Source: Pseudomonas sp. B21-056 (lineage in GTDB: Bacteria; Pseudomonadota; Gammaproteobacteria; Pseudomonadales; Pseudomonadaceae). Taken from it: a DNA stretch of 64,000 nucleotides. A program made the translations under genes and the position numbers. Every line of letters begins with the position of its first letter. The stretch's first letter is position 1. Where the stretch lies: assembly GCF_026016325.1 (NCBI RefSeq), contig NZ_CP087203.1:6262001-6326000 (forward strand), given 5' to 3'. Of this stretch, positions 6,995 to 57,620 are shown piece by piece. The notes under the pieces were generated by a model. It was not told the DNA's origin. It ran no database searches and saw only the letters and a list, made by a program, of their open reading frames with translations.

Positions 6995-7023
6995 GAAGAC
7001 GCGCCTGTCTTTATCCTCCCGGC

Positions 7024-25316: not shown

Positions 25317-25322
25317 CGCGGT

Positions 25323-26657: not shown

Positions 26658-26672
26658 GGGGGCTCCGATTGC

Positions 26673-27179: not shown

Positions 27180-27242
27180 CCTGCGTCCTCAATGACGTTT
27201 GAGCTATCCGTTGTTTGTCTGAAGGGTTATGGACAGCGACGC

Positions 27243-28778: not shown

Positions 28779-29196
28779 TTCGCCTCCTTGCTGAATACTT
28801 TCGCACGTCTGCGCGTGCGGGTGAGCCGAGGGGGAAATTCGCCTTGGGACTCACCGGAAAACCCTGCAAACAACCGCGAAACGGCTTTTTGCCAGCATGA
28901 TGGCTGATATTAACCGGCCTGCATGACAAAAAACCGCTCTCAGTACCTTCCCAGACCTGCCAGTCGCGCGGGTTGTTAAGCGCCTCACAACTGTAACAGA
29001 GTGGAAATAGCTTACCTTGACAAGCGATAAGTACTACACCAAAAATGCACAACTTCTTGAATATCAATGATGGCACTTTAAGATCATCAAGCATCTAATG
29101 GGCCATTACCGTCAAGGGACATGCGAAGTTCCACCCGGAACTTGCGTGTGAACTGCCCGACTCATTGTTCAGCGGGCGATAGGGAGATCGATCCAA
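28779..29196. promoter_or_regulatory. Divergent control region between fha1 and tssA operons
   Basis: A 418-bp intergenic region, relatively AT-rich (especially 28990-29090), from which both T6SS operons are read outward. It must hold both promoters. TTGACA occurs near 29017 on the plus strand but I could not find a convincing -10 partner, so I do not mark promoters. A short minus-strand frame across it (28753-29094) is not a plausible gene. Confidence 0.6.
28783..28790 (-). promoter_or_regulatory. Candidate RsmA/CsrA-binding site over the fha1 ribosome site
   Basis: On the minus strand CAAGGAGG lies just upstream of the fha1 ATG (GGAGG ends 4 bases before the start) and exactly matches the CANGGANG consensus. 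RsmA is known to repress translation of HSI-I genes, including fha1, in P. aeruginosa under Gac/Rsm control. The match is visible; actual binding is inferred. Confidence 0.5.
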
Positions 29197-30234
29197 GTGG
29201 ATGTGCCTTTGTTGCTCGCCGCCGTTTCCGCGAACTCGCCTTGTGGCGAAGACCTGGAATATGACGCGGATTTCCTGCGCCTGGAGCGTGATTCCCGAGG
29301 CCAACCCGAGCGCAGCATGGGCGACTCGATATTGCCCGCCGAGCCTCCCGAGTGGCGCAGCATCCAGCAACAGAGCCTGGACCTGCTGCAACGCAGCAAA
29401 GACCTGCGCATCACCCATTTCCTGTTGCAAAGCTCCCTGGCCCTCGAAGGCCTTCCAGGCCTGGCCCGCGTCCTGACGCTGATCAGCGAATTGCTCAAGC
29501 AATACTGGGCCGACCTGCACCCGCGCCTGGATGCCGATGACGACAACGATCCCACCGTGCGCATCAATGCCCTCGCCGGCCTGACGTCCGATGTCACCAT
29601 CCGTCTGCTGCGCGAAAGCATCCTGGCCCGGTCGCGCACTTTCGGCGCCGTCAGCCTGCGCGCCGCCGCCAACGCCAGCGGCCTGCAAAGCTTCGCCGAC
29701 GAAAGCCTCGGTGCCGAACAGCTTGCCGGCGCGTTGCTCGACAGCGATCCCGAGCAGTTGGAAATCACCCGTGCGGCGCTGCTGGAAGCCCGCGCCGCCG
29801 CCGAAGCCATCGAACAGCAGGTCAGCGATCAGGTCGGTTCCGCCCAGGGCGTGGACCTCGGTCCGCTGAAGCAGCCCCTGAAGATGGCCTTGCAGATCCT
29901 CGGTCAATTCGCCCCGCAGAGCGGCGACAGCAGCCTGACCGAGACTGCCGCCGACGACAGCGCCGCGCCGGCTGAATACACCAGCGCGCCGAGCGCACCG
30001 CGCAACACCGGCACGAGCACCGTCAGCGGTGAAATCAACAACCGCGACGATGTGCTGCGCAGCCTGGACCGGATTCTTGCCTACTACACCCGTCACGAGC
30101 CCTCCAGCCCCCTGCCGGTGCTGCTGAATCGGGCGAAGAATCTGGTGCACGCCGACTTCGCGGCCATCGTGCGCAACCTGATTCCCGACGGCATGAGTCA
30201 ATTTGAAAACCTGCGCGGCCCGGACAGCGAATAA
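29197..30234 (+). CDS. tssA: TssA, baseplate/sheath priming protein
   Basis: A 345-aa protein of the TssA family with the N-terminal ImpA region (SANSPCGEDLEYDADFLRLE) and a short C-terminal helical region (RSLDRILAYYTRHEPSSPLP). It coordinates tube and sheath polymerisation from the baseplate. The start is GTG at 29197, supported by AGGGAG about 9 bases upstream. First gene of the plus-strand operon. Confidence 0.93.
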   Translation: MDVPLLLAAVSANSPCGEDLEYDADFLRLERDSRGQPERSMGDSILPAEPPEWRSIQQQSLDLLQRSKDLRITHFLLQSSLALEGLPGLARVLTLISELLKQYWADLHPRLDADDDNDPTVRINALAGLTSDVTIRLLRESILARSRTFGAVSLRAAANASGLQSFADESLGAEQLAGALLDSDPEQLEITRAALLEARAAAEAIEQQVSDQVGSAQGVDLGPLKQPLKMALQILGQFAPQSGDSSLTETAADDSAAPAEYTSAPSAPRNTGTSTVSGEINNRDDVLRSLDRILAYYTRHEPSSPLPVLLNRAKNLVHADFAAIVRNLIPDGMSQFENLRGPDSE

Positions 30235-30315
30235 CAGCAAGCGGATCACGCAGTCACGTCACCGGCCCCACCGGATGACGCCAACACCGTCGCTCAAGCG
30301 ACCAGGAGCAGCAAC

Positions 30316-30822
30316 GTGGCGAAGCAAAGTTCTCAGAAATTCATCGCGCGCAACCGCGCGCCTCGAGTGCAGATCGAGTACGACGTCGAGCTCTACGGCG
30401 CCGAGAAGAAGGTCCAGTTGCCCTTCGTCATGGGCGTAATGGCCGACCTCGCCGGCAAGCCTGCCGAGCCTCTGGCACCCGTGGCCGACCGCAAGTTCCT
30501 TGAGATCGACGTCGACAATTTCGACTCGCGCCTCAAGGCCATGCAACCACGCGTAGCGTTCCATGTGCCCAACGAACTGACCGGCGAAGGCAACCTGAGC
30601 CTGGACCTGACATTCGAAAGCATGGACGACTTCAGCCCGGCCGCCGTGGCCCGCAAGGTCGACTCGCTGAACAAGTTGCTCGAAGCACGCACCCAACTGG
30701 CCAACCTGCTGACCTACATGGACGGCAAGACCGGCGCCGAAGAAATCATCATGAAGGCGATCAAGGACCCAGCGCTGTTGCAGGCCCTGGCGAGCGCGCC
30801 GAAGCCAGCACAGGATCAATGA
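30316..30822 (+). CDS. tssB: TssB, contractile sheath small subunit
   Basis: A 168-aa sheath protein (MAKQSSQKFIARNRAPRVQI...) with the conserved VQIEYDVELYGAEKKVQLPF segment. With TssC it forms the contractile sheath around the Hcp tube. Starts with GTG, preceded by AGGAGC. Its stop overlaps the first of two possible tssC starts. Confidence 0.96.
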   Translation: MAKQSSQKFIARNRAPRVQIEYDVELYGAEKKVQLPFVMGVMADLAGKPAEPLAPVADRKFLEIDVDNFDSRLKAMQPRVAFHVPNELTGEGNLSLDLTFESMDDFSPAAVARKVDSLNKLLEARTQLANLLTYMDGKTGAEEIIMKAIKDPALLQALASAPKPAQDQ

Positions 30823-30824
30823 TC

Positions 30825-32321
30825 ATGACCGACAATACCGCCCGCGAAGGCGCACAGAACCTCGGCGCGACCGAAGAAACCAGCGAATTCGCGTCCCTGC
30901 TGCTGCAAGAATTCAAGCCCAAGACCGAGCGCGCCCGCGAAGCGGTCGAGACCGCCGTGCGCACGCTGGCCGAACAGGCCCTGGCGCAGACCGACCTGGT
31001 GTCCAACGACGCCATCAAGTCGATCGAGTCGATCATCGCCGCCATCGACGCCAAACTCACCGCCCAGGTCAACCAGGTCATCCACCACCCGGACTTCCAG
31101 CAGCTGGAAAGCGCCTGGCGTGGCCTGCACTACCTGGTCAACAACACCGAGACCGATGAGCAGCTCAAGATCCGCGTGCTCAATATCTCCAAGCCCGACC
31201 TGCACAAGACCCTGAAGAAATTCAAGGGCACCGCGTGGGACCAGAGCCCGCTCTTCAAGAAGATGTACGAAGAAGAATACGGCCAGTTCGGCGGCGAGCC
31301 TTATGGCTGCCTGGTAGGCGACTACTACTTCGACCAGTCGCCACCGGACGTGGAGCTGCTGGGCGAACTGTCGAAAGTCTGCGCGGCGATGCACGCCCCG
31401 TTCATTTCCGCCGCCTCGCCGACCGTGATGGGCATGGGCTCGTGGCAGGAACTGTCGAACCCGCGCGACCTGACCAAGATCTTCACCACGCCGGAATACG
31501 CCGGCTGGCGCTCGCTGCGTGAATCGGAAGACTCGCGCTACATCGGCCTGACCATGCCACGCTTCCTGGCGCGCCTGCCATACGGCGCCAAGACCGACCC
31601 GGTGGAAGCCTTCGCCTTCGAAGAAAACACCGACGGCGCCGACAGCTCGAAATACACCTGGGCCAACGCCGCCTACGCGATGGCAGTAAACATCAACCGT
31701 TCGTTCAAACACTTCGGCTGGTGCTCGCGCATCCGCGGCGTGGAGTCCGGCGGTGAAGTGGAAAACCTGCCGGCCCACACGTTCCCGACCGATGACGGTG
31801 GCGTGGACATGAAGTGCCCGACCGAGATCGCCATTTCGGACCGCCGTGAAGCGGAACTGGCGAAAAACGGTTTCATGCCGCTGCTGCACAAGAAAAACAC
31901 CGACTTCGCCGCGTTCATCGGCGCCCAGTCGTTGCAGAAACCGGCCGAATACGACGACCCGGACGCCACCGCCAACGCCAACCTGGCCGCACGCCTGCCG
32001 TACCTGTTCGCCACCTGCCGGTTCGCCCATTACCTGAAGTGCATCGTGCGCGACAAGATCGGTTCCTTCAAAGAGAAGGACGAGATGCAGCGCTGGTTGC
32101 AGGACTGGATCCTCAACTACGTCGACGGCGACCCGGCGCACTCCACCGAAACCACCAAGGCCCAGCACCCACTGGCAGCGGCCGAAGTGATCGTCGAAGA
32201 AGTCGAAGGCAACCCGGGGTACTACAACTCCAAGTTCTTCCTGCGCCCGCACTACCAGCTCGAAGGACTGACCGTGTCGCTGCGCCTGGTTTCGAAACTG
32301 CCTTCGGCAAAGGGCGCGTAA
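30825..32321 (+). CDS. tssC: TssC, contractile sheath large subunit
   Basis: A 498-aa protein with the signature AWRGLHYLVNNTETDEQLKI and a C-terminal FFLRPHYQLEGLTVSLRLVS. It interlocks with TssB to make the sheath; ClpV recycles the contracted form. Two ATGs are possible: 30819 overlaps the tssB stop, while 30825 lies 9 bases after AGGA and is better spaced. Confidence 0.96.
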   Translation: MTDNTAREGAQNLGATEETSEFASLLLQEFKPKTERAREAVETAVRTLAEQALAQTDLVSNDAIKSIESIIAAIDAKLTAQVNQVIHHPDFQQLESAWRGLHYLVNNTETDEQLKIRVLNISKPDLHKTLKKFKGTAWDQSPLFKKMYEEEYGQFGGEPYGCLVGDYYFDQSPPDVELLGELSKVCAAMHAPFISAASPTVMGMGSWQELSNPRDLTKIFTTPEYAGWRSLRESEDSRYIGLTMPRFLARLPYGAKTDPVEAFAFEENTDGADSSKYTWANAAYAMAVNINRSFKHFGWCSRIRGVESGGEVENLPAHTFPTDDGGVDMKCPTEIAISDRREAELAKNGFMPLLHKKNTDFAAFIGAQSLQKPAEYDDPDATANANLAARLPYLFATCRFAHYLKCIVRDKIGSFKEKDEMQRWLQDWILNYVDGDPAHSTETTKAQHPLAAAEVIVEEVEGNPGYYNSKFFLRPHYQLEGLTVSLRLVSKLPSAKGA

Positions 32322-32337
32322 TCCGACCCCTTGATGT

Positions 32338-32440
32338 GATCGTTCCCACGCTCGGCGTGGGAATGCCGCCCGGGACGCTCCGCGTCCCTGGAACGCAGAG
32401 CGTCCCAAGATGCGTTGCCACGCAGAGCGTGGGAACGATC
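32338..32440. repeat. Pseudomonas interspersed palindromic repeat between tssC and hcp
   Basis: A second copy of the repeat also found at 839-955/2244-2265. It starts GATCGTTCCCACGCTC and ends GAGCGTGGGAACGATC, so its ends are inverted repeats of each other, with further hairpins inside. It lies in the tssC-hcp gap of the operon and could separate the expression of hcp from the upstream genes through RNA processing or 3'-end protection. Confidence 0.8.
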
Positions 32441-32481
32441 GACACAACACAACGTGGTTAGAAACCACACAGGGAGAAAAC

Positions 32482-32970
32482 ATGGCTGTTGATATTTTCA
32501 TCAAGATCGGCGACATCAAGGGCGAGTCCATGGACAAGGCCCACAAGGACGAGATCGACGTCCTGAACTGGAGCTGGGGCATGTCCCAGTCCGGCAACAT
32601 GCACACCGGCAGCGGTGGTGGCGCCGGCAAGGTGAACATCCAGGACCTGTCGCTGACCAAGTACGTCGACAAGGCTTCGCCGAACCTGATGATGCACTGC
32701 GCCAGCGGCAAGCACATCGACAAGGTCAAGTTGACCGTGCGCAAGGCCGGCGGTGAAAGCCAGGTCGAGTACATGATCATCAACCTGGAAGAAGTGCTGA
32801 TCACCTCCCTGAGCACTGGCGGCTCGGGCAGCGATGATCGCCTGACCGAAAACGTCACCCTGAACTTCGCCAAGGTGCTGGTGGACTACCAGCCGCAGAA
32901 AGCCGACGGCACCAAGGAAGGCGGTCCGGTCAAGTTCGGCTGGAACGTGCGTCAGAACGTCAAGGTGTAA
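32482..32970 (+). CDS. hcp: Hcp, T6SS inner-tube protein
   Basis: A 162-aa Hcp1-type protein (MAVDIFIKIGDIKGESMDKA..., with DVLNWSWGMSQSG). Hexamers stack into the tube propelled out of the cell and act as chaperones for small effectors such as Tae-type amidases. ATG 32482 follows AGGGAGAA; an upstream in-frame ATG at 32410 lies within the repeat and is rejected. A hairpin follows the stop. Confidence 0.96.
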   Translation: MAVDIFIKIGDIKGESMDKAHKDEIDVLNWSWGMSQSGNMHTGSGGGAGKVNIQDLSLTKYVDKASPNLMMHCASGKHIDKVKLTVRKAGGESQVEYMIINLEEVLITSLSTGGSGSDDRLTENVTLNFAKVLVDYQPQKADGTKEGGPVKFGWNVRQNVKV

Positions 32971-32973
32971 TCG

Positions 32974-33007
32974 AACACGCCCCCGGTGCCACGCGCCGGG
33001 GGTGTTT
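32974..33007 (+). terminator. Hairpin after hcp, possible partial terminator
   Basis: AACACGCCCCCGG pairs with CCGGGGGTGTT across a short loop, 3 bases after the hcp stop. The T tract is weak (GTTTGG). It may protect the abundant hcp transcript and reduce read-through into tae4 and the baseplate genes. Confidence 0.55.
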
Positions 33008-33051
33008 GGTGCTTGCTCTCATCCAATCCTTTACCGCGCGGTGTCTGAGTC

Positions 33052-33492
33052 ATGGCCAAGCCTTCGTTTATCAATTTGTGGAACAGCTATCCCAATACGC
33101 CAACGCCCTGCGACGGCCCTTGGGACAATCAATGCGCTATCCGCATGAGTGTCACGCTCAACGCGGAAAAAACCATCAAGGTCAACAAGTCGACCTATAC
33201 CGAACCCAAATGCGCGCACGAACACGCACGGGGGGCGGAGTCGTTGGCCAACTGGCTCTGGCGACATCATCTAGGGCGTCCGCTGATTCTCTCGGGAAGT
33301 GCCGAAGATCGGCGCAAGCTCATTCAGAAGACCGGGATCATCTTCTTCAAGGACTGCTTTGCACGGCATGGGCAATCCCTGGAAGCACGCACCGGCGACC
33401 ACATCGATCTGTGGAATCGCGGCAGGGTCACGGGCGACTTCGCCGACCAGGCCCATCGCTCAAAACAAGTCTGGTTCTGGGAACTGTCATGA
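33052..33492 (+). CDS. tae4: Tae4-family T6SS peptidoglycan amidase effector
   Basis: A 146-aa NlpC/P60-like amidase starting MAKPSFINLWNSYPNT. The catalytic Cys is C28 in NQCAIRMS and the His-Asp pair is H117/D119 in GDHIDLWN, both typical of Tae4 enzymes, which cut the D-Glu to mDAP bond of peptidoglycan in target cells. No signal peptide is present, as expected for an Hcp-delivered effector. It lies directly after hcp and overlaps the next gene in an ATGA arrangement. Confidence 0.92.
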   Translation: MAKPSFINLWNSYPNTPTPCDGPWDNQCAIRMSVTLNAEKTIKVNKSTYTEPKCAHEHARGAESLANWLWRHHLGRPLILSGSAEDRRKLIQKTGIIFFKDCFARHGQSLEARTGDHIDLWNRGRVTGDFADQAHRSKQVWFWELS

Positions 33493-33935
33493 TCAAGCCA
33501 ACGCTACAGTCGCTTCTGGCCAGTTGCATGATCGTAAGCCTGCACGCCTGTGCCGAAACGGTGCCTGCCGATGCGAACCGGGCGAGCAACAACCAGGTCG
33601 ACCTTGGCGGCCAGATCCTGACCCTGGAAAACCACAACCAACGTTGCGCCCTACGCAAACCGGATCAAAGCGTCCTGACCCTGGACATGACATGGCCCTG
33701 CCACCTGAGCGTCGATCGCCAGGACAAGCCACGGGTCGAGAGTTTCAATAACGCAAAAATCATCATCGTCCAGCACTTTGAGGCCGAACCTGCACCCAGT
33801 CAGGAGTGCCGCTCCCAGTACCAGGCCGTCAGGCTGATAGCCGGTCGCCTGGAAGCCTCGATGCTCGCCGAAGGCGGCCGTTGCACTCAAGGTGCCGTCG
33901 ACCAGAAAAACTTCGTGGCCCTTTTTACGTGGTAA
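33489..33935 (+). CDS. Putative immunity lipoprotein for Tae4 (not recognisably Tai4)
   Basis: A 148-aa exported protein starting [20 protein letters not shown] with a Cys at 21 that could be a weak lipobox (LHAC). The mature part has four further Cys residues and looks beta-rich ([32 protein letters not shown]). Immunity to a periplasmic amidase must act in the periplasm, which fits the exported nature. Coupling to tae4 by a 4-bp overlap makes immunity the best guess. It does not show the helical pattern of classical Tai4. The stop overlaps the tssE start by 7 bp. Confidence 0.65.
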
Positions 33936-34441
33936 CCGAAATCGCCACCCGCGATCGCCTCCAACCCTCCCTATTGGACCGGTTGACCGACGACGATCCG
34001 ACCAATCCCAAGGAAAGCGCCGACAAGCGCGTGCTGTCGCTCACCCAGCTGAAAGCCTCGGTGCTGCGTGACCTGGCGTGGTTGCTCAATACCACTTCGT
34101 TGCTCGACGCCGATGCCACGCTGCATACCCCGGCGGGCACCTCGGTGGTGAACTTCGGGCTGCCGGCGCTGGCCGGCAACAGCGCGTCGAACGTCGATCT
34201 TTCGGCGCTGGAAGCCCTGATCCAGCAAGCCATCGCCACCTTCGAGCCGCGCATCCTGCGCCATACCCTGCGCGTGCGCGCCCGGGCGACAGCCGAGATG
34301 AACCACAACGCCTTGAGTTTCGAGATCGAAGGCGACCTCTGGGCCCAGCCGGTGCCGCTGCGCCTGATGCTGCAAACCGACCTGGACCTGGAAACCGGCC
34401 ATGTGCGGGTGGTCAACGCCGATCAGCGGAGACGCTCATGA
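33929..34441 (+). CDS. tssE: TssE, gp25-like baseplate protein
   Basis: A 170-aa gp25-family protein with the typical [15 protein letters not shown] start and the conserved [11 protein letters not shown] and [20 protein letters not shown] segments. Start is GTG 33929 ([10 protein letters not shown]), overlapping the end of the preceding gene; the longer open frame from 33806 is not needed. Stop overlaps tssF (ATGA). No tagJ gene lies before it, unlike HSI-I. Confidence 0.93.
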
Positions 34442-36297
34442 ACCCGCGCCTGCTGGAGCTGTACAACCAGGAACTGCACCACGTGCGCGAAAGCGCGGCG
34501 GAGTTCGCCAAGGAATACCCCAAGATCGCCAGTCGGCTGACGTTGTCCGGCATGGACTGCGCCGACCCTTATGTCGAACGGCTGCTGGAAGGTTTCGCCT
34601 ACCTGACGGCGCGGGTTCAACTCAAGCTCGACGCCGAGTACCCGACCTTCACCCACAACCTGCTGGAAATCGCCTACCCCCATTACCTGGCGCCGACGCC
34701 GTCGATGACCGTGGTGCAGATGCAGGCTGATCCCGACGAAGGTTCATTGAGCAGCGGCTTCGAGCTGCCCCGTGACAGTGTCCTGCGCGCCGCCCTCGGT
34801 CGTGAAACCCAGACCTGCTGCGAGTACCGCACCGCCCACTCGGTGACGTTGTGGCCATTGCAGGTCAGCCAGGCCGAGTACTTCGGCAACCCGTCCACGG
34901 TGCTCGGGCGCTTGGCGGCCAGTGAGCCGAAAGCCAAGGCCGGCCTGCGCCTGACCCTGCGCACCGGCGCCGAATTGCCGTTCAACAGCCTGGCCCTGGA
35001 CAACCTGCCGCTGTACCTCAGCGGCGCGGACGAGCAACCGTTCCGCCTCTACGAACAACTGCTGGGCAGCGCCTGCGCGGTGTTCGCCCGCCAGCCCGGC
35101 GGCAATTGGGTGGAGCGGCTGCCCCAGGATGCATTGCGCTCCCGCGGCTTCGATGATGTCGACGCTGCGCTGCCAGTGGTGCCGCGGGCGTTCCAGGGCT
35201 ATCGCCTGTTGCAGGAATACTTCGCCCTGCCCCAGCGCTTTCTGTTCGTCGACTTCACCCAACTGAGCCGGGCAGTCAAGCGCTGCGACGGCCAGGAGCT
35301 GGAGTTGATCGTGCTGTTCGACCGCCACGACCCGAGCCTGGAAGGCAGCGTCGGCGCTGCGCAGTTCCTGCCGTTCTGCACCCCGGCCATTAACCTGTTT
35401 CCCAAGCGCCTGGACCGCATCCACCTGTCGGACCGGGTCAACGAGCACCACCTGATCGCTGACCGCACCCGACCGATGGATTTCGAAGTGCATTCGCTGA
35501 CCGGTCTCACCGGCCACGGCACCGGGCCGGAGCAGCCGTTCCTGCCGTTCTATGCCGTGCGCGACCCGTCCCGCTATGGCCGTGACCAGGCCTATTACAC
35601 GGTGCGCCGTGAACCGCGGGTGTTGTCCAGCGATCAGCGGCGCAACGGCCCGCGCTCGACCTACATCGGCAGCGAAACCTTTGTCAGCCTGGTGGACAGT
35701 CACCAGGCGCCCTACCGCCACGATCTGCGTCAATTAGGCGTGACCGCGCTGTGCACCAACCGCGACCTGCCGCTGTTCATGAGCGTGGGCAACGGCAAGA
35801 CCGACTTCACCCTGGCCGACAGTGCGCCGGTGGGCGCCGTGCGCTGCGTCGCCGGGCCGAGTCGCCCACGGGCCAGCCATGCCCACGACGCCAAGGCCTG
35901 GCGGCTGATCAGCCAACTCTCGCTGAACTACTTGTCCCTCAGCGAACAAGGCCAGGGCGCCGCCGCCCTGCGCGAACTGCTGCGCCTGTATGGCGACAGC
36001 AACGACGCGGCGTTGCAATTGCAGATCGAAGGCCTGCGGGACGTCAGCAGCAAGGCCTGCACCCGGCGCCTGCCGATGCCCGGCCCGATCGTGTTCGGTC
36101 GCGGCCTGGAGATCACCCTGGAATTCGATGAAAACGCGTTTCGCGGCACCGGGGTGTTTCTGCTCGGCGCGGTGTTCGAGCGCTTCCTGGCACGCTACGT
36201 GTCGATCAACAGTTTTACCGAGACGGTGATTCGTACCACCGAACGCGGCGAGATCATGCGATGGAAAGCCAAGCCCGGACGTCGTCCGACCCTGTGA
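34438..36297 (+). CDS. tssF: TssF, baseplate wedge protein
   Basis: A 619-aa TssF/ImpG protein starting [20 protein letters not shown], the family's diagnostic N-terminus, and containing [11 protein letters not shown]. With TssG it makes the baseplate wedge that TssK binds. I chose ATG 34438 (ATGA overlap with tssE) rather than 34078, which would overlap tssE extensively. Confidence 0.95.
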
Positions 36298-37313
36298 GTA
36301 CCCTGGACGCGATGCACCAGGAACCCTGGGAATACGACTTCTTCCAGGCGTTGCGGCGTATCGAGTGCGAAAGCCCCGGACTGCCGCGCCTGGGCCATTC
36401 GTTGCGCCTGGCCGATGACCCGCTGCGCCTCGGGCAACAGGCCGACTGCACTTTCGCCCCGGCCACCCTCGCCTCGGTGCAACCGGGCGTCGACGGCGCA
36501 CCGGCGCGGCTGGAGCAGTTCTTCTTCGGCCTCGGCGGCCCCAACGGTCCGATGCCGTTGCACATGACCGAATACGTGCGCGAGCGCCAGCGCAACAACG
36601 CCGACAGCACCAGCAAGCGCTTTCTCGATGTGTTCCACCATCGCCTGCTCAGCCTGTTCTACCGGGCCTGGGCCGAAGCGCGGCCAACGGTCAGCCATGA
36701 CCGTCCGGACGACGACTACTGGTCGGCGCGCCTGGCGGCGTTCAGCGGCCGGGGCATGCCAAGCCTGCTCGAACAGGGGCTGATCCCCGACACGGCGAAG
36801 CTGCATTACAGCGGTCACCTGGCAGCGCAAACCCGCTACCCGGACGGTTTGAAAGCCATCCTCGGCGAGTACTTCGGCCTGCCGGTGGAGATCGAAGAAT
36901 ACGTCGGCCAATGGCTGGAGTTGCCCGAACGCAGCCGCGTCGGCGTCAGCGCCTATCAACTGGGCGTGGACTTCTGCCTGGGCCGCTACGTGTGGGACCG
37001 CCAGCACAAATTCCGCATTCGCCTCGGGCCGCTCAAGCTCGTCGACTACATGGGCATGCTGCCCGGTGGTGAGCCGTTCAACGAATTGGTGGCCTGGGTC
37101 GCCGAGTACCTGGGCCATGAACTGGACTGGGACCTGAACCTGGTCCTGGAGCAGCCCGAAGTCCCGGCGCTCCAACTCAACGGCCGTTTCCGCCTGGGGT
37201 TCAACACCTGGCTGGGACAGCCCGAAAAAGATGCCAACGATCTAATACTGGCCCGGCATTACGCCGAACAGGCCAACACCTCACAGACCTCAAGGAGCCA
37301 TGAGCATGGGTGA
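36261..37313 (+). CDS. tssG: TssG, baseplate wedge protein
   Basis: A 350-aa TssG/ImpH protein with PWEYDFFQALRRIECESP near the N-terminus and FFFGLGGPNGPMPLHMTEYV. It overlaps tssF by 37 bp; a later ATG at 36312 (MHQEPWEYD) would avoid the overlap but leaves no upstream part. TssF-TssG overlaps of this kind are common. Confidence 0.93.
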   Translation: MESQARTSSDPVSTLDAMHQEPWEYDFFQALRRIECESPGLPRLGHSLRLADDPLRLGQQADCTFAPATLASVQPGVDGAPARLEQFFFGLGGPNGPMPLHMTEYVRERQRNNADSTSKRFLDVFHHRLLSLFYRAWAEARPTVSHDRPDDDYWSARLAAFSGRGMPSLLEQGLIPDTAKLHYSGHLAAQTRYPDGLKAILGEYFGLPVEIEEYVGQWLELPERSRVGVSAYQLGVDFCLGRYVWDRQHKFRIRLGPLKLVDYMGMLPGGEPFNELVAWVAEYLGHELDWDLNLVLEQPEVPALQLNGRFRLGFNTWLGQPEKDANDLILARHYAEQANTSQTSRSHEHG

Positions 37314-39996
37314 AATCAGTCGCGCCGCGTTGTTCGGCAAACTCAACAGCGTGGCCTACAAAGCCATCGAAGCCGCCACTGTGTTCTGCAAATTGCGCGG
37401 CAACCCTTATGTGGAGCTGGCCCACTGGTTTCACCAGTTGCTGCAACTGCAGGACTCGGACCTGCACCGCATCATCCGCCAGTTCAACGTCGAGCCGGCA
37501 CGCCTGGCCCGAGACCTGACCGACGCGTTGGACCGCCTGCCGCGGGGTTCGACCTCGATCACCGACCTGTCCTCCCACGTCGAAGAAGCCGTGGAACGCG
37601 GCTGGGTCTACGGCAGCCTGATGTTCGGCGAAAGCCAGGTGCGCACCGGTTACCTGGTACTGGGCATCCTCAAGACCCCAAGCCTGCGCCACGCGTTGCT
37701 GGGGCTGTCGTCGGAGTTCGACAAGGTCAAGGCCGAAGCCTTGAGCGAACGCTTTGACGAATACGTCGGCGACTCCCCGGAAAACGCCCTGACCGCCAGC
37801 GACGGCTTCAACGCCGGCAGCGTGCCGGGCGAAGCCAGCGGCGCCATGGCCCCCAGCGCCATGGGCAAGCAGGAAGCCCTCAAGCGCTTTACCGTCGACC
37901 TCACCGAGCAGGCCCGCAGCGGCAAACTCGACCCGATCGTCGGCCGTGACGAAGAGATCCGCCAACTGGTGGACATCCTCATGCGCCGCCGACAGAACAA
38001 CCCGATCCTCACCGGTGAAGCCGGCGTGGGCAAGACCGCCGTGGTCGAGGGCTTTGCCCTGCGCATCGTCGCCGGTGACGTGCCGCCGTCCCTCAAGGAC
38101 GTGGAACTGCGCAGCCTCGACGTCGGCCTGTTGCAGGCCGGCGCGAGCATGAAAGGCGAGTTCGAACAGCGCCTGCGCCAGGTCATCGAAGACGTCCAGG
38201 CCTCGCCGAAGCCGATCATCCTGTTCATCGACGAAGCCCACACACTGGTGGGTGCCGGTGGCGCCGCCGGGACCGGTGACGCAGCCAACCTGCTCAAGCC
38301 GGCCCTGGCCCGCGGCACCCTGCGCACCGTGGCCGCCACGACCTGGGCCGAGTACAAGAAGCACATCGAGAAAGACCCGGCCCTGACCCGGCGTTTCCAG
38401 GTGGTGCAAGTGGCCGAGCCGTCGGAAGACAAGGCCCTGCTGATGATGCGCGGCGTGGCCTCGACCATGGAACAGCACCATCAGGTGCAGATCCTCGACG
38501 AAGCCCTGGAGGCCTCGGTCAAGCTGTCCCACCGCTACATCCCGGCGCGTCAGTTGCCGGACAAATCCGTGAGCCTGCTGGACACCGCCTGCGCCCGCGT
38601 CGCCATCAGCCTACACGCAGTGCCGGCCGAAGTGGACGACAGCCGCCGGCGCATCGAAGCCCTGGAAACCGAGCTGCAGATCATCGCCCGTGAACACGCT
38701 ATCGGCGTGAGCATCGGCACGCGCCAGACCCAGAGCGAAACCCTGCTGAGCACCGAGCGCGAACGCCTCGCCGAGCTGGAAAGCCGCTGGGCCGAAGAGA
38801 AAACCCTGGTGGACGAACTGCTCGCCACCCGCGCCACCCTGCGCGAACGCGTCGGCGTAGTGGACAGCGACGACGCCAGCGACGCTTGCGACAACGAAAG
38901 CCACGCCCTGCGCGAGCAACTGGTGGACCTGCAACAGCGCCTCAGCGCCCTGCAAGGCGAAACCCCGTTGATCCTGCCGACCGTGGATTACCAGGCCGTG
39001 GCCTCGGTGGTCGCCGACTGGACCGGTATCCCGGTGGGCCGCATGGCTCGCAACGAACTGGAAACCGTGCTCAACCTCGACCAGCACCTGAAGAAACGCA
39101 TCATCGGCCAGGACCATGCCTTGCAGATGATCGCCAAGCGCATCCAGACCTCCCGCGCCGGCCTCGACAACCCGAGCAAGCCCATCGGCGTGTTCATGCT
39201 CGCCGGCACCTCCGGCGTGGGCAAGACCGAAACCGCCCTGGCCCTGGCCGAAGCCATGTATGGCGGTGAACAGAACGTCATCACCATCAACATGAGCGAG
39301 TTCCAGGAAGCCCACACCGTGTCCACCCTCAAGGGCGCGCCACCGGGCTACATCGGCTACGGCGAAGGCGGCGTGCTGACCGAAGCCGTGCGGCGCAAAC
39401 CGTACAGCGTGGTGTTGCTGGACGAGGTGGAAAAAGCCCACCCGGACGTGCATGAAATCTTCTTCCAGGTGTTCGACAAAGGCGTGATGGAAGATGGCGA
39501 AGGCCGGGTGATCGACTTCAAGAACACCCTGATCCTGCTGACCACCAACGCCGGTACCGAGCTGATCGCCGAGGTGTGCAAAAACCCGCAGGATGTGCCC
39601 GAGCCGGAAGAAATCGCCAAGGCCCTGCGCCAGCCGCTGCTGGAGATCTTCCCGCCGGCCCTGCTCGGGCGCCTGGTGACGATTCCGTACTACCCGCTCA
39701 GCGACGTGATGCTCAAGGCCATCACCCGTCTGCAACTCAACCGCATCAAGAAGCGCGTGGAGAACACCCACAAAGTGGCGTTCGACTATGACGACGCGGT
39801 GATCGACCTGATCGTCTCGCGCTGCACCGAGACCGAAAGCGGCGGCCGCATGATCGACACCATCCTGACCAACAGCCTGTTGCCGGACATGAGTCGCGAG
39901 TTCCTGACCCGCATGCTCGAAGGCAAGGCCCTGGCCGGGGTGCGGATCAGCGCGGTGGATAACGAATTGCAATACGATTTCAGCGACGCGGCCTGA
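37306..39996 (+). CDS. clpV: ClpV/TssH, AAA+ sheath-recycling ATPase
   Basis: An 896-aa ClpB-like ATPase starting MGEISRAALFGKLNSVAYKA. Two AAA+ modules carry Walker A motifs GEAGVGKT (237-244) and GTSGVGKT (634-641). ClpV extracts TssC from contracted sheaths so the parts can be reused. ATG 37306 is 8 bases after AAGGAG, so I prefer it to 37300, which is only 2 bases away. Overlaps the tssG stop. Confidence 0.96.
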   Translation: MGEISRAALFGKLNSVAYKAIEAATVFCKLRGNPYVELAHWFHQLLQLQDSDLHRIIRQFNVEPARLARDLTDALDRLPRGSTSITDLSSHVEEAVERGWVYGSLMFGESQVRTGYLVLGILKTPSLRHALLGLSSEFDKVKAEALSERFDEYVGDSPENALTASDGFNAGSVPGEASGAMAPSAMGKQEALKRFTVDLTEQARSGKLDPIVGRDEEIRQLVDILMRRRQNNPILTGEAGVGKTAVVEGFALRIVAGDVPPSLKDVELRSLDVGLLQAGASMKGEFEQRLRQVIEDVQASPKPIILFIDEAHTLVGAGGAAGTGDAANLLKPALARGTLRTVAATTWAEYKKHIEKDPALTRRFQVVQVAEPSEDKALLMMRGVASTMEQHHQVQILDEALEASVKLSHRYIPARQLPDKSVSLLDTACARVAISLHAVPAEVDDSRRRIEALETELQIIAREHAIGVSIGTRQTQSETLLSTERERLAELESRWAEEKTLVDELLATRATLRERVGVVDSDDASDACDNESHALREQLVDLQQRLSALQGETPLILPTVDYQAVASVVADWTGIPVGRMARNELETVLNLDQHLKKRIIGQDHALQMIAKRIQTSRAGLDNPSKPIGVFMLAGTSGVGKTETALALAEAMYGGEQNVITINMSEFQEAHTVSTLKGAPPGYIGYGEGGVLTEAVRRKPYSVVLLDEVEKAHPDVHEIFFQVFDKGVMEDGEGRVIDFKNTLILLTTNAGTELIAEVCKNPQDVPEPEEIAKALRQPLLEIFPPALLGRLVTIPYYPLSDVMLKAITRLQLNRIKKRVENTHKVAFDYDDAVIDLIVSRCTETESGGRMIDTILTNSLLPDMSREFLTRMLEGKALAGVRISAVDNELQYDFSDAA

Positions 39997-40019
39997 CCTG
40001 ACAGGAACACAAAGAACCC

Positions 40020-40110
40020 TGTGGGAGCGAGCCTGCTCGCGATAGCGGAATTACATTCAACATCGAGGTTGAATGACACACCGCAATCGCGAGCAGGCTC
40101 GCTCCCACAG
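40020..40110. repeat. REP/BIME pair between clpV and vgrG
   Basis: TGTGGGAGCGAGCCTGCTCG at 40020 and its inverse ending at 40110, enclosing a small ATTCAAC/GTTGAAT hairpin. Likely separates vgrG and the effector genes from the core operon at the RNA level. Confidence 0.85.
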
Positions 40111-40154
40111 TGGGTCCGGTTCCTTCAGCTCCTACAACTTGCACGGGATACTCG

Positions 40155-42086
40155 ATGTTACTCAACCAAGCCACACGCCTGGCCAAAATCACCAGCCCCC
40201 TGGGGCCCGAGGTGCTGTTGCTCAAGGACATGGGCGGCGGCGAAGAGCTGGGAAGGCTGTTCAACTATGAGTTGCAGCTGCACTCGCTGGACAACGCCAT
40301 CGACCTCAACCAGGTGCTCGGCAAGCCCATGTGCGTGAGCATGCAGCTGGACGGCGGTGGCGAGCGGCATTTCCACGGCATCGTGGCCCGCTTCAGCCAG
40401 AACGTCGACCAGGGCCAGTTCGCCAGTTACCAGGCCACGCTGCGGCCCTGGCTGTGGCTGCTGACGCGTACTTCCGATTGCCGGATTTTCCAGAACCTGA
40501 CCATCCCGCAGATCATCAAGCAGGTGTTCCGCGACCTGGGGTTTTCCGACTTCGAAGACGCCCTGAGCCGACCCTACCGCGAGTGGGAATACTGCGTGCA
40601 GTATCGCGAGACCAGCTTCGACTTCGTCAGCCGCCTGATGGAACAGGAAGGGATCTACTACTTCTTCCGCCACGAACAGGGCCGTCACGTGCTGGTGCTG
40701 GCCGATGCCTACGGTGCGCACACCAGCGCGCCCGGCTACGCGTCGGTGCCCTACTACCCGAAGAACGAGCAGCAACGCGAGCGTGACCACATTCACGACT
40801 GGCACCTGGCCCAGGAAGTCCAGCCCGGCTCCCTGGAGCTCAACGACTATGACTTCCAGCGCCCCAGCGCGCGCATCGACGTGCGCTCGGCCATGCCCCG
40901 TCCGCACACCGCCGGCGACTATCCGCTGTACGACTATCCCGGCACCTATGTGCAGAGCGCAGACGGCGAACACTACGCCCGCACCCGCATCGAAGCCTTG
41001 CAGACCCTGCACGAACAGGTCGAGCTGGCCGGTAACGCACGGGGCCTGGGCTCGGGCCATCTGTTCAGCCTCACCGGCTTCACCCGCCAGGACCAGAACC
41101 GCGAATACCTGATCGTCGGCGCCCGCTACTACCTGTCCCAGGAAAGTGGCGAAACCAGCGGCGGCGCACCGTCGGCACAGTTCGAAAGCAGCCTGACCTG
41201 CATCGTCGCCCAGCAAAGCTATCGTCCGCTGCCCCACACCCACCGGCCCATTGTCAAAGGTCCGCAGACCGCCCTGGTGGTCGGCCCCAAGGGCGAGGAA
41301 ATCTGGACCGACCAGTTCGGCCGGGTGAAGGTGCACTTCTATTGGGACCGTCACGACCAGTCCAACGAAAACAGCTCGTGCTGGATCCGCGTGTCGCAAT
41401 CCTGGGCCGGAAAGAACTGGGGCTCGATGCAGATCCCGCGCATCGGCCAGGAAGTGATCGTCAGCTTCCTCGAAGGCGACCCGGACCGACCGATCATCAC
41501 CGGACGCGTCTATAACGCCGAGCAGACCGTGCCTTACGACCTGCCCGACAACGCCACCCAGAGCGGCATGAAGAGCCGTTCGAGCAAGGGCGGCACGCCG
41601 GCGAATTTCAACGAAATCCGCATGGAAGACAAGAAAGGCGCCGAACAGTTGTACATCCATGCCGAGCGCAACCAGGACATCGTGGTCGAGGTGGACGAAA
41701 GCCATTCGGTGGGCCACGACCGCAACAAGAGCATCGGCCATGACGAGACGGTGACCATCGGCAACAACCGCCTGCGCATCGTCAAACAGGAAGACATCCT
41801 CTCGGTGGGCCTGCGCAAGACCGACAGTATCAGCCAGAGCTACGTCATCGAAGTGGGCGAAAACCTGCGGCTGGTGTGCGGTGAAAGCATCCTGGAGCTC
41901 AACGCCAGCGGCCAGATCAACCTGACCGGCGTGCAGATCAGCTTCTATGCCAAGGGCGATGCCGAGTTCAACACCGGCGGCGTTTTGCACCTGAACAATG
42001 GCGGCGGTCCCGGCGCTACCCCGGATGGCCAGGGCGTCAAGGCCAGCATCGACGCCAACGTCAAAGCCGCGTTCCCCAAGGGTTAA
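40155..42086 (+). CDS. vgrG: VgrG, T6SS spike protein
   Basis: A 643-aa VgrG. The N-terminal gp27-like part (MLLNQATRLAKITSPLGPEV...) includes FDFVSRLMEQEGIYYFFRHE. A gp5 OB-like part contains VWPKGE-like VGPKGEEIWTDQFGRVKVHF. The C-terminal needle has repeated charged strands (HSVGHDRNKSIGHDETVTIG). No extra C-terminal effector domain is visible, so it is a carrier spike. It should be sharpened by the PAAR region of the Rhs proteins and Tse6-like protein downstream. I chose ATG 40155 over 40110. Confidence 0.95.
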   Translation: MLLNQATRLAKITSPLGPEVLLLKDMGGGEELGRLFNYELQLHSLDNAIDLNQVLGKPMCVSMQLDGGGERHFHGIVARFSQNVDQGQFASYQATLRPWLWLLTRTSDCRIFQNLTIPQIIKQVFRDLGFSDFEDALSRPYREWEYCVQYRETSFDFVSRLMEQEGIYYFFRHEQGRHVLVLADAYGAHTSAPGYASVPYYPKNEQQRERDHIHDWHLAQEVQPGSLELNDYDFQRPSARIDVRSAMPRPHTAGDYPLYDYPGTYVQSADGEHYARTRIEALQTLHEQVELAGNARGLGSGHLFSLTGFTRQDQNREYLIVGARYYLSQESGETSGGAPSAQFESSLTCIVAQQSYRPLPHTHRPIVKGPQTALVVGPKGEEIWTDQFGRVKVHFYWDRHDQSNENSSCWIRVSQSWAGKNWGSMQIPRIGQEVIVSFLEGDPDRPIITGRVYNAEQTVPYDLPDNATQSGMKSRSSKGGTPANFNEIRMEDKKGAEQLYIHAERNQDIVVEVDESHSVGHDRNKSIGHDETVTIGNNRLRIVKQEDILSVGLRKTDSISQSYVIEVGENLRLVCGESILELNASGQINLTGVQISFYAKGDAEFNTGGVLHLNNGGGPGATPDGQGVKASIDANVKAAFPKG

Positions 42087-46946: not shown

Positions 46947-46951
46947 ACCCC

Positions 46952-50416: not shown

Positions 50417-50950
50417 TCAGATGTTGGCCGGCACGAAATCCGGGCCGCCCAGCTTGTCGCGCACCATCACCGCCGAGCGCATCAACGGCGTCCACATGCC
50501 GTCCGGGCTGTTCCACGCCGCGCCCGCCCAGCGGGTGTCGGCCACCAGCTCGGCCTTGTGCCGCTCCAGCAGGCGCTTGAGGGCGACGGCGACGCTGCCC
50601 ATGTCCACGGCAAACAGGTCGCCGTAGGGGCCTTGCGGCTGCTTGCGCTGTTTGTCCTGGCAGAAGCGGTAGTACCAGACCCAGTCATGGGCGATGTAGA
50701 TCGCCCGTGTGCGGTCCGGGTATGTCGCCAGCATGGTCAGCAGGGCCGAGACGAAACGCATGGGGAAACTGGCGTCGTGGGTCTGGCGCCAGTACGGCAT
50801 GATCAACTGGTCGAACGCGGCCACCACGTTCTGCGGCTCGTCGTTATCGCTCTTGGCTTCGAGAAAGTAGAACGGCTCGCCCACCAGGAACTTGTCCAGA
50901 TCGTTGTTGGCCAACGCCAGCAGCAGCACGTTGTCGCTTGGATTGCTCAT
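50417..50950 (-). CDS. Putative immunity protein for the Tse6-like toxin
   Basis: A 177-aa protein starting MSNPSDNVLLLALANNDLDK. Mostly helical and soluble, with Trp/Tyr-rich stretches (YIAHDWVWYYRFCQDKQRKQ). It overlaps the toxin gene stop by 4 bp, the position held by tsi6 in P. aeruginosa, but it is nearly twice as long as Tsi6 and shows no obvious similarity to it. I chose ATG 50950 for the ATGA coupling; the upstream in-frame start at 51073 lies within the toxin. Confidence 0.7.
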   Translation of the reverse strand: MSNPSDNVLLLALANNDLDKFLVGEPFYFLEAKSDNDEPQNVVAAFDQLIMPYWRQTHDASFPMRFVSALLTMLATYPDRTRAIYIAHDWVWYYRFCQDKQRKQPQGPYGDLFAVDMGSVAVALKRLLERHKAELVADTRWAGAAWNSPDGMWTPLMRSAVMVRDKLGGPDFVPANI

Positions 50951-52242
50951 TGGATTCTCACTACGTCTCGGGTGGTCATCAACGCGTTGATGTCGTTGCC
51001 GTGGGCGATCGGCACGTTGTCCAGCACCGCTTCGCGCATGCCGCCCGGATGGGTCAGGCCGCCCGGGCGCCACAGCGAATTCACCCCGCCCTCGTTGCCG
51101 GTGGGCATCAGCACCTTGGGGTTGTCCAGGTTCATCATGTAGATGTCCTTGCCGACCAGCGATCCCGGATCGTAACCCAGGGCCGACTCCAGTACCGAAA
51201 CGTCGCCGGTTTTCTTGTACTCGGCGACCACGGCGTTCAGGTCGGATTTTGCCATGACAAACTTGTTCGGGTTGAACGATCCATATTTGGGGTTGGCGAT
51301 ATCGTCCGAGGTGAACAGGAAACTGCCGCCCTCCTCCTCGAATGTCTTGAGGTGCTTATCGACATACGGGCCTTCCAGATAATCCCTTGGCGGCGGCCGG
51401 CTGCCCTTGGGAATCGCCATGATATCGGCTTCGGTCATGCCCGCCTTGTAGGCCGCCGCGCGGGGTGTCGGGGCCGCGCCGAGACGGGCCATTTTCGGCC
51501 CCAGGCCCAGCAGCGCCATGCCGGCGATGCCCTGCAGCAAGTCGCGATAACCCGGGCCGAGGCGGTCCCCCAACTGACCCAACAGCGCCATGCCGCCCAT
51601 CATCGCGCCGCCGATTACCACGAACCCTGCGAAGGCCGCCGCACCGGCCATCGCCGCCAGTACCGCAGCGGCGCCCATGGCGACCATGCCCAGGGCTTCC
51701 AGCCCGGTGTGCAGCCAGCCTTCGAGATCGAGGACAAACGCGACGGCCACCGTTGGCCCGCCGATGAACGTATTGGGGCTGCCGCTCTTGATGTGCGCGC
51801 CGCAGACCATCTTGCTCTGCAACCGCGCCGCCGGCCTGCCGTTGATGTAGACCGTGGCGCTGCCTTCGGCGATCAGCACCGGGAAGGGCCAGATCGGGTG
51901 ATTCATCGGCAGGCCCGAGCAGGTGGACGACACATCCGCGCCCGCGCGCATCGCATTACGGTTATTGATCTGGACGTTGAGGCTGCCCATGATCAACACC
52001 CCCGTGGTCGGCTCGGGCAGGTTGAAGAGGGTGTTCAGACCCTTGATGATCTGGAACATCGACAGGCCGCCCGCCGCAATCGAGCCGGCCATGATCGCCA
52101 GCGCCACGCCGCCGGTCGCCACGGTGGCCGCGACCACCGCCGCACCGATCAACGCACCGGCAACGGCCCCCGCCACCATCGCGGCGACACCAAAACCGTG
52201 GGCAATTTCATCGCCAAGGCGCGCAGCGGCCAGCATATCCAT
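50947..52242 (-). CDS. tse6: Tse6-like PAAR effector with unrecognised toxin tip
   Basis: A 431-aa effector. Its first 260 residues closely follow the Tse6 plan: MDMLAAARLGDEIAHGFGVA, hydrophobic segments near 18-60, a PAAR region (SATVYINGRPAARLQSKMVC then GAHIKSGSPNTFIGGPTVAV), and a second hydrophobic region at about 180-215. The tip (about 265-431) contains GPYVDKHLKTFEEEGGSFLF and MPTGNEGGVNSLWRPGG. Tse6 of P. aeruginosa is an NAD(P) glycohydrolase. I cannot tell whether this tip shares that activity. Flanked by EagT6 and a presumed immunity gene. Confidence 0.82.
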   Translation of the reverse strand: MDMLAAARLGDEIAHGFGVAAMVAGAVAGALIGAAVVAATVATGGVALAIMAGSIAAGGLSMFQIIKGLNTLFNLPEPTTGVLIMGSLNVQINNRNAMRAGADVSSTCSGLPMNHPIWPFPVLIAEGSATVYINGRPAARLQSKMVCGAHIKSGSPNTFIGGPTVAVAFVLDLEGWLHTGLEALGMVAMGAAAVLAAMAGAAAFAGFVVIGGAMMGGMALLGQLGDRLGPGYRDLLQGIAGMALLGLGPKMARLGAAPTPRAAAYKAGMTEADIMAIPKGSRPPPRDYLEGPYVDKHLKTFEEEGGSFLFTSDDIANPKYGSFNPNKFVMAKSDLNAVVAEYKKTGDVSVLESALGYDPGSLVGKDIYMMNLDNPKVLMPTGNEGGVNSLWRPGGLTHPGGMREAVLDNVPIAHGNDINALMTTRDVVRIQ

Positions 52243-52269: not shown

Positions 52270-52704
52270 TCAGGCGGTCTGTGGGCGCAGCTTGAGGGAG
52301 TGCATGGCCATCTTCCACGCCGGCTCGTGGTGCACGAGATCGTTCGGAGTGGTCGTCAGCGTCGTGATCAACCCCACGGGCTGGCGGTCGATGAACACCT
52401 GGCGCAGCATCAGCTCCCGCCCTTCGCGCTGCCAGCTGTAGTCGAGCAACACCGCGGCGTGACCATGGAGCGCGAAATCCCAGCGCTTGATCAGGTTGAA
52501 TCCGGGCAACTGCTGCTCGGCGCTCGCCAGTTGCGCGGCAACGTAGTCGCTGAACGGCGTATCGCCCCGACCCGGGTCGCGACTGATGACGAAACTGGCT
52601 TCCCGGGCCGTTCCCACCGCGGGTAACTTGAAGATGTTGATGCTCTGGTCCTGCCAACTGTCGGGAATGTCGAGATCGGCTTCTTGGAGGCGATAGAGCG
52701 GCAT
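52270..52704 (-). CDS. eagT6: EagT6 chaperone (DUF1795)
   Basis: A 144-aa DUF1795 chaperone starting MPLYRLQEADLDIPDSWQDQ, very close to P. aeruginosa EagT6 (PA0094). It binds the hydrophobic segments of the Tse6-like effector encoded 27 bp downstream. I chose ATG 52704 because the family starts there; an in-frame ATG at 52761 adds 19 unrelated residues. Confidence 0.93.
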   Translation of the reverse strand: MPLYRLQEADLDIPDSWQDQSINIFKLPAVGTAREASFVISRDPGRGDTPFSDYVAAQLASAEQQLPGFNLIKRWDFALHGHAAVLLDYSWQREGRELMLRQVFIDRQPVGLITTLTTTPNDLVHHEPAWKMAMHSLKLRPQTA

Positions 52705-57288: not shown

Positions 57289-57620
57289 TGAAGATAAAAA
57301 CAACGATCGAGCTGAACTTCTCCGAGATAAAGGACGTTGAGCATCTCTACGAGACCCTTGCCGAAAAATTTGGTTTTCCTGAAGGTTATGGCAAGAATGT
57401 CGATGCCATGATTGACTGCCTGTTTGGCTTGAGATACCCGAAAGAAGGAATGACCAAAATAAGCATAGACCTTACCGAAGCAATCATTATCCAGGCAAAA
57501 AATATAACTTCCACACAACAGAATCTACGAGACACTCTTATCTTCATTGTTGAGTTTGTGAATTTCAAATGCAAATTCAAAGAAACACCACCTTCCATCC
57601 TTTTGCTTCTTGAGCGCTAG
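57288..57620 (+). CDS. Barstar-like RNase inhibitor, immunity to Rhs toxin 2
   Basis: A 110-aa protein (MKIKTTIELNFSEIKDVEHL...) with the barstar core FGFPEGYGKNVDAMIDCLFG, matching barstar's FPEYYGENLDALWDCLTG region that plugs the barnase active site. Starts at ATG 57288 (TAATG overlap with the Rhs stop), 9 bases after a G-rich ribosome site; ATG 57279 is less well spaced. Markedly AT-rich compared with the T6SS core. Confidence 0.9.
   Translation: MKIKTTIELNFSEIKDVEHLYETLAEKFGFPEGYGKNVDAMIDCLFGLRYPKEGMTKISIDLTEAIIIQAKNITSTQQNLRDTLIFIVEFVNFKCKFKETPPSILLLLER

What the first reader, a model, noticed from the sequence alone, without database searches (positions are those of the whole stretch)
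50417..52242. Tse6-like delivery part with a different toxin-immunity cassette
The EagT6 chaperone and the first ~260 residues of the effector follow P. aeruginosa Tse6, but the presumed immunity protein is 177 aa, about twice Tsi6, and unlike it. The toxin tip has a conserved-looking MPTGNEGGVNSLWRPGG motif I cannot assign. This may be an uncharacterised T6SS toxin class.
Basis: partly seen in the sequence, partly recalled or inferred. Interest (0 to 1): 0.7.

Follow-up and report, generated by a model that had tools for sequence, protein, structure and literature searches.

The report
Known Tne3 NADase cassette on Tse6-type carrier
This Pseudomonas gene looks like a bacterial weapon whose exchangeable tip resembles the NAD-destroying enzyme of Streptococcus pyogenes; the type was already predicted in print and we found no bench test of it, so it is a good test target rather than a new class.

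Summary
The effector at 50947-52242 (-) has a Tse6/Tas1-type prePAAR-PAAR delivery half and, after about residue 258, a tip unlike Tse6; a 177-aa immunity gene follows with a 4-base overlap. But the tip is not unassigned: it is the toxin named Tne3 (immunity Tni3) in a 2023 in silico survey that lists the P. aeruginosa PA7 and P. corrugata copies (PMC9846239, passages). The PA7 tip is 80% identical to ours.

I tested the predicted fold independently. An AlphaFold2 model of the tip (pLDDT 90.2) matches S. pyogenes NAD+ glycohydrolase SPN in PDB ranks 1-4 (best E 2.2e-4); the next rows have E >= 0.68. One of three family profiles also finds SPN alone (E 0.012); two do not. The published likeness of the immunity protein to the SPN inhibitor IFS was not reproduced, but its model is only fair.

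Most likely an injected NAD(P)+ hydrolase neutralised by the 177-aa protein; activity is inferred. New member of a known, apparently untested kind. Added here: related tips sit beside immunity genes of several sizes and sequences, and tni3 persists as orphans and arrays.

The parts
50947..52242 (-). Effector, 431 aa: prePAAR/TM + PAAR delivery half (residues 1 to about 258) and C-terminal toxin tip (about 259-431), Tne3 type
50950..51468 (-). Toxin tip, residues about 259-431; SPN-type NAD+ glycohydrolase fold (predicted)
   Evidence: AlphaFold2 pLDDT 90.2, pTM 0.85 (residues 258-431); Foldseek ranks 1-4 all SPN; family profile A6 finds SPN only, profiles A1 and A8 do not
51055..51108 (-). MPTGNEGGVNSLWRPGGL motif, residues 379-396 with E384, W391, P393-G395; E404 follows at 51031-51033
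   Evidence: those residues invariant in 16 of 16 rows of A6; PxGxE/WxPGG motif reported for Tne3
50417..50950 (-). Immunity gene, 177 aa (Tni3), predicted helical; overlaps the effector stop by 4 bases
   Evidence: a homologue with the same 4-base overlap directly behind the tip in 19 of 19 distinct window-type rows printed
52270..52704 (-). EagT6-type chaperone, 144 aa (DcrB/DUF1795)
   Evidence: Pfam PF08786 E 3.3e-31; a homologue in 29 of the 37 loci searched
20515..42086 (.). Type VI secretion genes next door (IcmF/TssM, DotU/TssL, VasE/TssK, Fha, TssC, TssF, TssG, ClpV-like ATPase, VgrG at 40110-42086): the presumed delivery machine
   Evidence: Pfam, (9 of the 10 proteins scanned are of this kind; the tenth, at 15310-16026, is an ABC ATPase)

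Best explanation
An antibacterial type VI effector with an exchangeable cassette at the tse6 locus. The EagT6-type chaperone holds the prePAAR/transmembrane half, which is loaded by its PAAR on the VgrG spike of the neighbouring T6SS and injected (inferred from Tse6). The tip, an SPN-fold enzyme, then hydrolyses NAD+ (perhaps also NADP+) to nicotinamide and ADP-ribose in the target cytosol and stops growth (fold supported by prediction; activity inferred). R282 and E404 are my candidates for the two ART-like catalytic residues (inferred from conservation). The 177-aa helical protein encoded with a 4-base overlap binds the tip and protects kin (inferred from gene order). It is Tne3-Tni3 in the sense of PMC9846239.
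For: Foldseek of the tip model: 3pnt_A E 2.2e-4, probability 1.00, TM 0.58 by query length, 18% identity; 7wvh_A, 4kt6_A and 7wvh_B next; rank 5 has E 0.68 and probability 0.02. Profile A6 against 177,635 PDB sequences, E <= 10: only 4kt6_A (E 0.012) and 3pnt_A (0.018). The PA7 orthologue is 80% identical in the tip and is named Tne3 in print, with a P. corrugata protein. The tip domain also ends Rhs-like and WXG/LXG-like proteins (my recognition by eye) and an annotated hemagglutinin-repeat protein, as expected of a polymorphic toxin. The immunity gene mostly travels with the tip: of 398 genus genomes 24 have a tni3 match; of the 23 other than the window's own, 14 have an intact window-type tip directly beside it, 1 a tip fragment, 4 a divergent tip and 4 no tip. 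The locus exchanges tips at residue about 255-262.
Against: No activity has been measured. The sequence link to SPN is fragile: profiles A1 and A8 do not recover it, and another profile gave a chance hit at E 0.035. The structural match is moderate (TM 0.58, rmsd 4.2). By the alignment and my count of chain numbering, SPN R289 falls in a stretch missing from this family, and the aligned part stops short of E404, so catalytic equivalence is not established. The immunity protein did not match IFS by profile or fold (the 50 rows shown of 153; model pLDDT only 75.3).
Confidence: 0.82

Rival explanations
1. The tip has the SPN/ART-related fold but transfers ADP-ribose to a target macromolecule, or cyclises NAD+, instead of plain hydrolysis.
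For: The ART superfamily holds transferases and cyclases as well as hydrolases (recalled); pertussis S1 appears at ranks 15-16 but with E 4.0 and probability 0.03.
Against: SPN, the only confident match, is described as a hydrolase without transferase or cyclase activity (PMC3795565, part 1 of 4 read).
Confidence: 0.12
2. A divergent Tse6 (Tne1), Tne2 or TNT-type NADase tip, or a Tas1-type (p)ppApp synthetase tip.
For: Same carrier as Tas1, and by the literature as Tse6.
Against: No PDB sequence match of the tip to any of these at E <= 10, and none stands among the 50 Foldseek rows shown, of 65 with E <= 10. Structures of their tips exist (4ZV0, 6B12, 4QLP, cited in PMC10539506; 6ox6); I did not check that each is in the Foldseek library.
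Confidence: 0.03
3. A degenerate cassette without enzymatic activity.
For: A Tne3 tip remnant does occur elsewhere (G913).
Against: The window ORF is intact, it keeps the invariant positions of A6 and its tip is 96-99% identical to the seven loci L002-L008.
Confidence: 0.03

Closest known systems
Tne3-Tni3 of P. aeruginosa PALA37 / PA7 and P. corrugata (PMC9846239, in silico in the passages read)
   Same: Same carrier, same kind of locus beside a T6SS, same PxGxE...WxPGG tip; PA7 tip 80% and PA7 immunity protein 72% identical
   Different: Only sequence divergence seen. The name Tne3 was also offered for a different Serratia Rhs tip (PMC10539506, passages).
SPN (Nga) NAD+ glycohydrolase and its inhibitor IFS, Streptococcus pyogenes
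   Same: Fold of the enzyme domain; part of the motif region in one profile alignment; toxin encoded beside an inhibitor
   Different: 18% identity; different delivery; IFS likeness of the immunity protein not reproduced here
Tse6/Tne1-Tsi6 (P. aeruginosa PAO1)
   Same: Carrier, chaperone type and locus type
   Different: No sequence match of tip or immunity protein
Tas1 (P. aeruginosa PA14)
   Same: Carrier: residues 22-259, E 1.6e-119
   Different: The match ends at the tip

Membership tests
Tse6-type prePAAR/PAAR T6SS effector | prePAAR and transmembrane start plus PAAR | tested here: met
   PAAR_motif E 1.2e-11, 45.1 bits (cut-off 27); prePAAR_I 19.8 bits, below its cut-off of 25; NCBIfam PAAR model 33.2 bits, below its cut-off of 124; but 6xrf and 6ox6 match
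Tse6-type prePAAR/PAAR T6SS effector | Eag chaperone gene beside it | tested here: met
   52270-52704, PF08786 E 3.3e-31
Tne3 (PMC9846239) | Tip homologous to PSPA7_0167 of PA7 on the Tse6 carrier | tested here: met
   L014 (NC_009656.1, PA7) tip 80% identical over 167 of 167 residues, carrier 82%; that L014 holds PSPA7_0167 rests on the paper's text, not on an annotation read here
Tne3 (PMC9846239) | PxGxE and WxPGG motif | tested here: met
   380-PTGNE-384 and 391-WRPGG-395; E384, W391, P393, G394, G395 invariant, P380 and G382 nearly so, in 16 rows of A6
Tne3 (PMC9846239) | NAD+ glycohydrolase activity | not testable with these tools
   needs an assay; none is reported in the passages read
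SPN-type NAD+ glycohydrolase fold | Structural similarity to SPN catalytic domain | tested here: met
   Foldseek ranks 1-4, best E 2.2e-4
SPN-type NAD+ glycohydrolase fold | Detectable sequence homology | tested here: inconclusive
   A6 finds SPN at E 0.012; A1 and A8 do not
SPN-type NAD+ glycohydrolase fold | Counterparts of R289, G330, E389/E391 | tested here: inconclusive
   the alignment does not place them firmly; residues from PMC6893971 passages
IFS-type inhibitor (Tni3 as published) | Similarity of the immunity protein to IFS | tested here: inconclusive
   no IFS by profile or in the 50 Foldseek rows shown of 153; model pLDDT 75.3
Tse6/Tne1 toxin domain with Tsi6 | Tip homologous to Tse6 NADase domain; immunity homologous to Tsi6 | tested here: not met

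The most novel reading that the evidence does not exclude
One SPN-fold interbacterial toxin family has been paired independently with several unrelated inhibitors (177 aa, 156 aa, about 87-97 aa, 68-77 aa, 112 aa beside different members), and the window's helical 177-aa inhibitor is not IFS-like. Inhibitors would then be replaced as well as co-inherited, and the S. pyogenes virulence factor SPN with IFS would be one human-directed branch of an antibacterial lineage. Only three of these types were compared with each other, with shallow profiles; the tree of tips puts the 156-aa and 177-aa partners' tips together, which speaks against those two being unrelated.
Probability: 0.3. Interest if true: 0.45.

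Novelty: new member of a known kind. Interest (0 to 1): 0.27.

Why it matters
It replaces 'unknown toxin class' with a specific, testable assignment and supports a 2023 prediction by an independent method. It also illustrates how one carrier gene exchanges toxin-immunity cassettes and leaves orphan immunity genes behind. If the SPN link is right, a human virulence factor and a presumed antibacterial weapon share one enzyme fold, which bears on how such toxins change use.

Tried and rejected
Pfam and NCBIfam on the tip and four divergent tips: nothing at E <= 1. Single-sequence PDB search of the tip, the immunity protein, one divergent tip and the 156-aa immunity protein: chance hits only. TelB of S. 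intermedius was considered as the same family because an IMG/VR locus with a WXG/LXG-like gene carries this tip; set aside because the paper describes TelB as TNT-like (PMC5555719, passages). Bacteroides Bxa paper (PMC11699363, passages): mentions SPN only for comparison. Profile A8 (two close rows dropped, two very divergent ones added) lost the SPN match. hhalign between the 177-aa and 156-aa immunity families: probability 3.8%, inconclusive; 177-aa and 156-aa against the 87-aa family: 0.2% and 0.1%. Phages: no match. Four scans of viral contigs gave one and the same contig. The tree of tips has long branches and is used only loosely. Frames printed for minus-strand loci in the script were taken on the wrong strand and were not used; redid them. 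The script found no matches because its query file was empty.

Full report
The observation. The effector is a 431-aa ORF at 50947-52242 on the minus strand; its immunity gene (177 aa) overlaps the effector's stop by 4 bases and ends at 50417; the Eag chaperone is at 52270-52704, outside the stated span. Pfam gives PAAR for the effector and DcrB for the chaperone, nothing for tip or immunity protein. NCBIfam gives only a PAAR model, below its cut-off. Residues 22-259 match the PDB sequence of Tas1 (E 1.6e-119) and residues 1-62 match 6xrf. The tip has no PDB sequence match beyond one chance hit, nor has the immunity protein.

Where the parts meet. I aligned the window effector with six effectors on the same carrier, one from PA7 and five from four unnamed Pseudomonas genomes. 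Identity is 45-100% per 20-residue block up to residue 260. Then, for the three with other tips (G913, G930 and the second effector of G800), it is 0-30%. PA7 stays at 60-100%. The two with a divergent tip of the same family (first effector of G800, G897) stay at 20-60% until the last block, where it is 0. The cassette thus begins at about residue 255-262. G+C is 60.7% in the tip against 68.2% in the carrier half, a weak sign of separate origin.

Relatives. A scan of genome contigs gave 14 loci, all Pseudomonas, 78-99% identical over the whole tip, among them P. mediterranea, P. corrugata and P. aeruginosa PA7. The 98-99% identity to P. corrugata and P. mediterranea suggests that the window is of that group; I did not establish the species. 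Of 398 Pseudomonadaceae genomes 23 have a tip match at E <= 0.01: 15 with 69% identity or more in frames of 433-451 aa, and 8 more distant, in frames of 312-1719 aa. Of 398 genomes across the phylum 5 match profile A1, and of 350 across the class 2 match profile A2, the window's own included each time. Elsewhere the tip ends an annotated hemagglutinin-repeat protein on a Rahnella plasmid, a WXG/LXG-like protein (by eye) in an IMG/VR contig, and a partial form occurs on an Enterococcus faecalis conjugative plasmid. No phage record matched. This is the pattern of a polymorphic toxin domain.

What is in print. A search for Tse6 and PA7 led to PMC9846239 (passages). That survey of 52 clinical P. 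aeruginosa isolates found in two of them a Tse6 homologue with a third kind of tip, named Tne3. It lists PSPA7_0167 of PA7 and a P. corrugata protein as homologues, predicts SPN-like NADase function from HHpred and Phyre2, notes the PxGxE and WxPGG motifs, counts PAAR, Rhs, LXG and haemagglutinin-type architectures, and names the neighbour Tni3 as IFS-like. It also reports a tni3 beside tse6-tsi6 in another isolate. No activity test appears in the passages read. My searches for Tne3, Tni3 (10 of 13 papers listed), Tne2 with Tse6, Tse6 with PA7 and SPN with type VI secretion listed no experiment on this tip that I could recognise; the held library lacks most subscription journals and all preprints. 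The name is ambiguous: PMC10539506 (passages) offers Tne3 for a Serratia Rhs tip, and PMC13285283 (passages) uses Tne3 in a tree without my being able to see which is meant.

Independent test of the fold. I aligned the window tip with 15 relatives (A4) and predicted the structure: pLDDT 90.2, pTM 0.85, the five models ranging from 69.0 to 90.2. Foldseek against 350,542 PDB chains puts SPN in ranks 1-4 (3pnt_A E 2.2e-4, probability 1.00; 7wvh_A 1.3e-3; 4kt6_A 1.6e-3; 7wvh_B 2.3e-3), and then nothing until E 0.68 with probability 0.02. A profile of 16 diverse tips (A6) matched in the PDB sequences only 4kt6_A (E 0.012) and 3pnt_A (E 0.018), over profile positions 29-138 including the motif. The sequence link alone is weak; the fold link is good.

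Residues. In A6, P283, Y288, H297, F301, L355, E384, G386, W391, P393, G394, G395 and E404 are invariant in 16 rows, and R282 nearly so. In A8, where two close rows were exchanged for two very divergent ones, L355, G395 and E404 stay invariant. I take E404 as the likely ART-type glutamate and R282 as the likely arginine, by inference only. SPN residues R289, G330 and E389/E391 are reported to matter for its activity (PMC6893971 passages), but the alignment does not place them firmly on this family.

Immunity. In 398 genus genomes 24 have a tni3 match; in two of these (G897, G800) only fragments. Of the 23 besides the window's own, 19 have a tip match and 4 (G334, G892, G930, G1042) none at E <= 0.01. 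Of the 19, 14 have an intact window-type tip directly adjacent, G913 has only the second half of one, and 4 (G332, G897, G800, G1070) have a divergent tip. G1042 carries three tni3 copies without a tip; G913 has a displaced tip fragment with tni3 behind an effector that bears another tip, and a second tni3 further on. I read these as orphan immunity genes left by cassette exchange. The 19 distinct window-type rows printed have the immunity gene with a 4-base overlap, 19 of 19; that script saw only loci whose tip fits its motif pattern. Divergent tips have other neighbours: 156 aa (L031, L032, L035), 87-97 aa (L030, L033, L044, L072, L073, L085), 68-77 aa (L036, L038), 112 aa (L042), 98 aa (L040) and 80 aa (L046). 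Comparison of the 177-aa type with the 156-aa type was inconclusive, and with the 87-aa type negative, on shallow profiles; the others were not compared. The tree of tips joins the partners of the 177-aa and 156-aa types against the rest, with long branches. The immunity model is helical but only fair (pLDDT 75.3, pTM 0.75). IFS is absent from the 50 Foldseek rows shown of 153 (best E 0.62) and from two profile searches. So the IFS-like nature reported in print is neither confirmed nor excluded here.

Setting. The window contains T6SS genes between 20515 and 42086, including VgrG at 40110-42086, so a delivery machine is next door. The effector gave the only match in its own genome, for the tip at E <= 1 and for the whole protein at E <= 1e-5.

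Conclusion. The finding is a correctly seen Tse6-type effector with another cassette; the cassette is the published but, as far as found, untested Tne3-Tni3 type. Most likely it depletes NAD(P)+ in competitors. Fold: supported by prediction. Activity, catalytic residues, delivery and neutralisation: inferred.

Noticed in passing
52933-57288 (+) and 57279-57620 (+): Rhs-like protein (by eye) whose tip matches Pfam Ribonuclease PF00545, E 1.9e-11; the overlapping 113-aa ORF looks like a barstar-type inhibitor (recalled, not tested).
   Followed up: partly
42552-46946 (+), 46943-47578 (+): A second Rhs-like protein with a closely similar body (by eye) but another tip without a Pfam match at E <= 0.01; by eye nuclease-like, with a 211-aa probable immunity gene overlapping it.
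   Followed up: partly
47776-48102 and 48171-48644 (+): ComJ-like (PF11033, E 8e-6) and SUKH-1 (PF09346, E 6e-16) genes: perhaps further, possibly orphan, immunity genes.
   Followed up: partly
48866-50380 (-): 504-aa protein with a DUF6630 match (30.4 bits, cut-off 27), found beside tni3 in 7 loci (L001, L002, L004, L005, L008, L016, L017; some may be one genome twice); function unknown.
   Followed up: no
L043 1894-2139 and 3872-4399: Enterococcus faecalis conjugative plasmid with two partial copies of a Tne3-like tip end sharing the same C-terminus (by eye); no delivery part recognised.
   Followed up: no
L084 (G1042) 4198-4728, 6210-6752, 9413-9955; L083 (G913) 7019-7794 and 3840-4397: Three diverged tni3 copies with no tip match in G1042; a displaced tip remnant with tni3, and a second tni3, in G913.
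   Followed up: yes
L091: Very divergent relative that lacks the E384 and W391 counterparts but keeps the E404 counterpart in the alignment.
   Followed up: no
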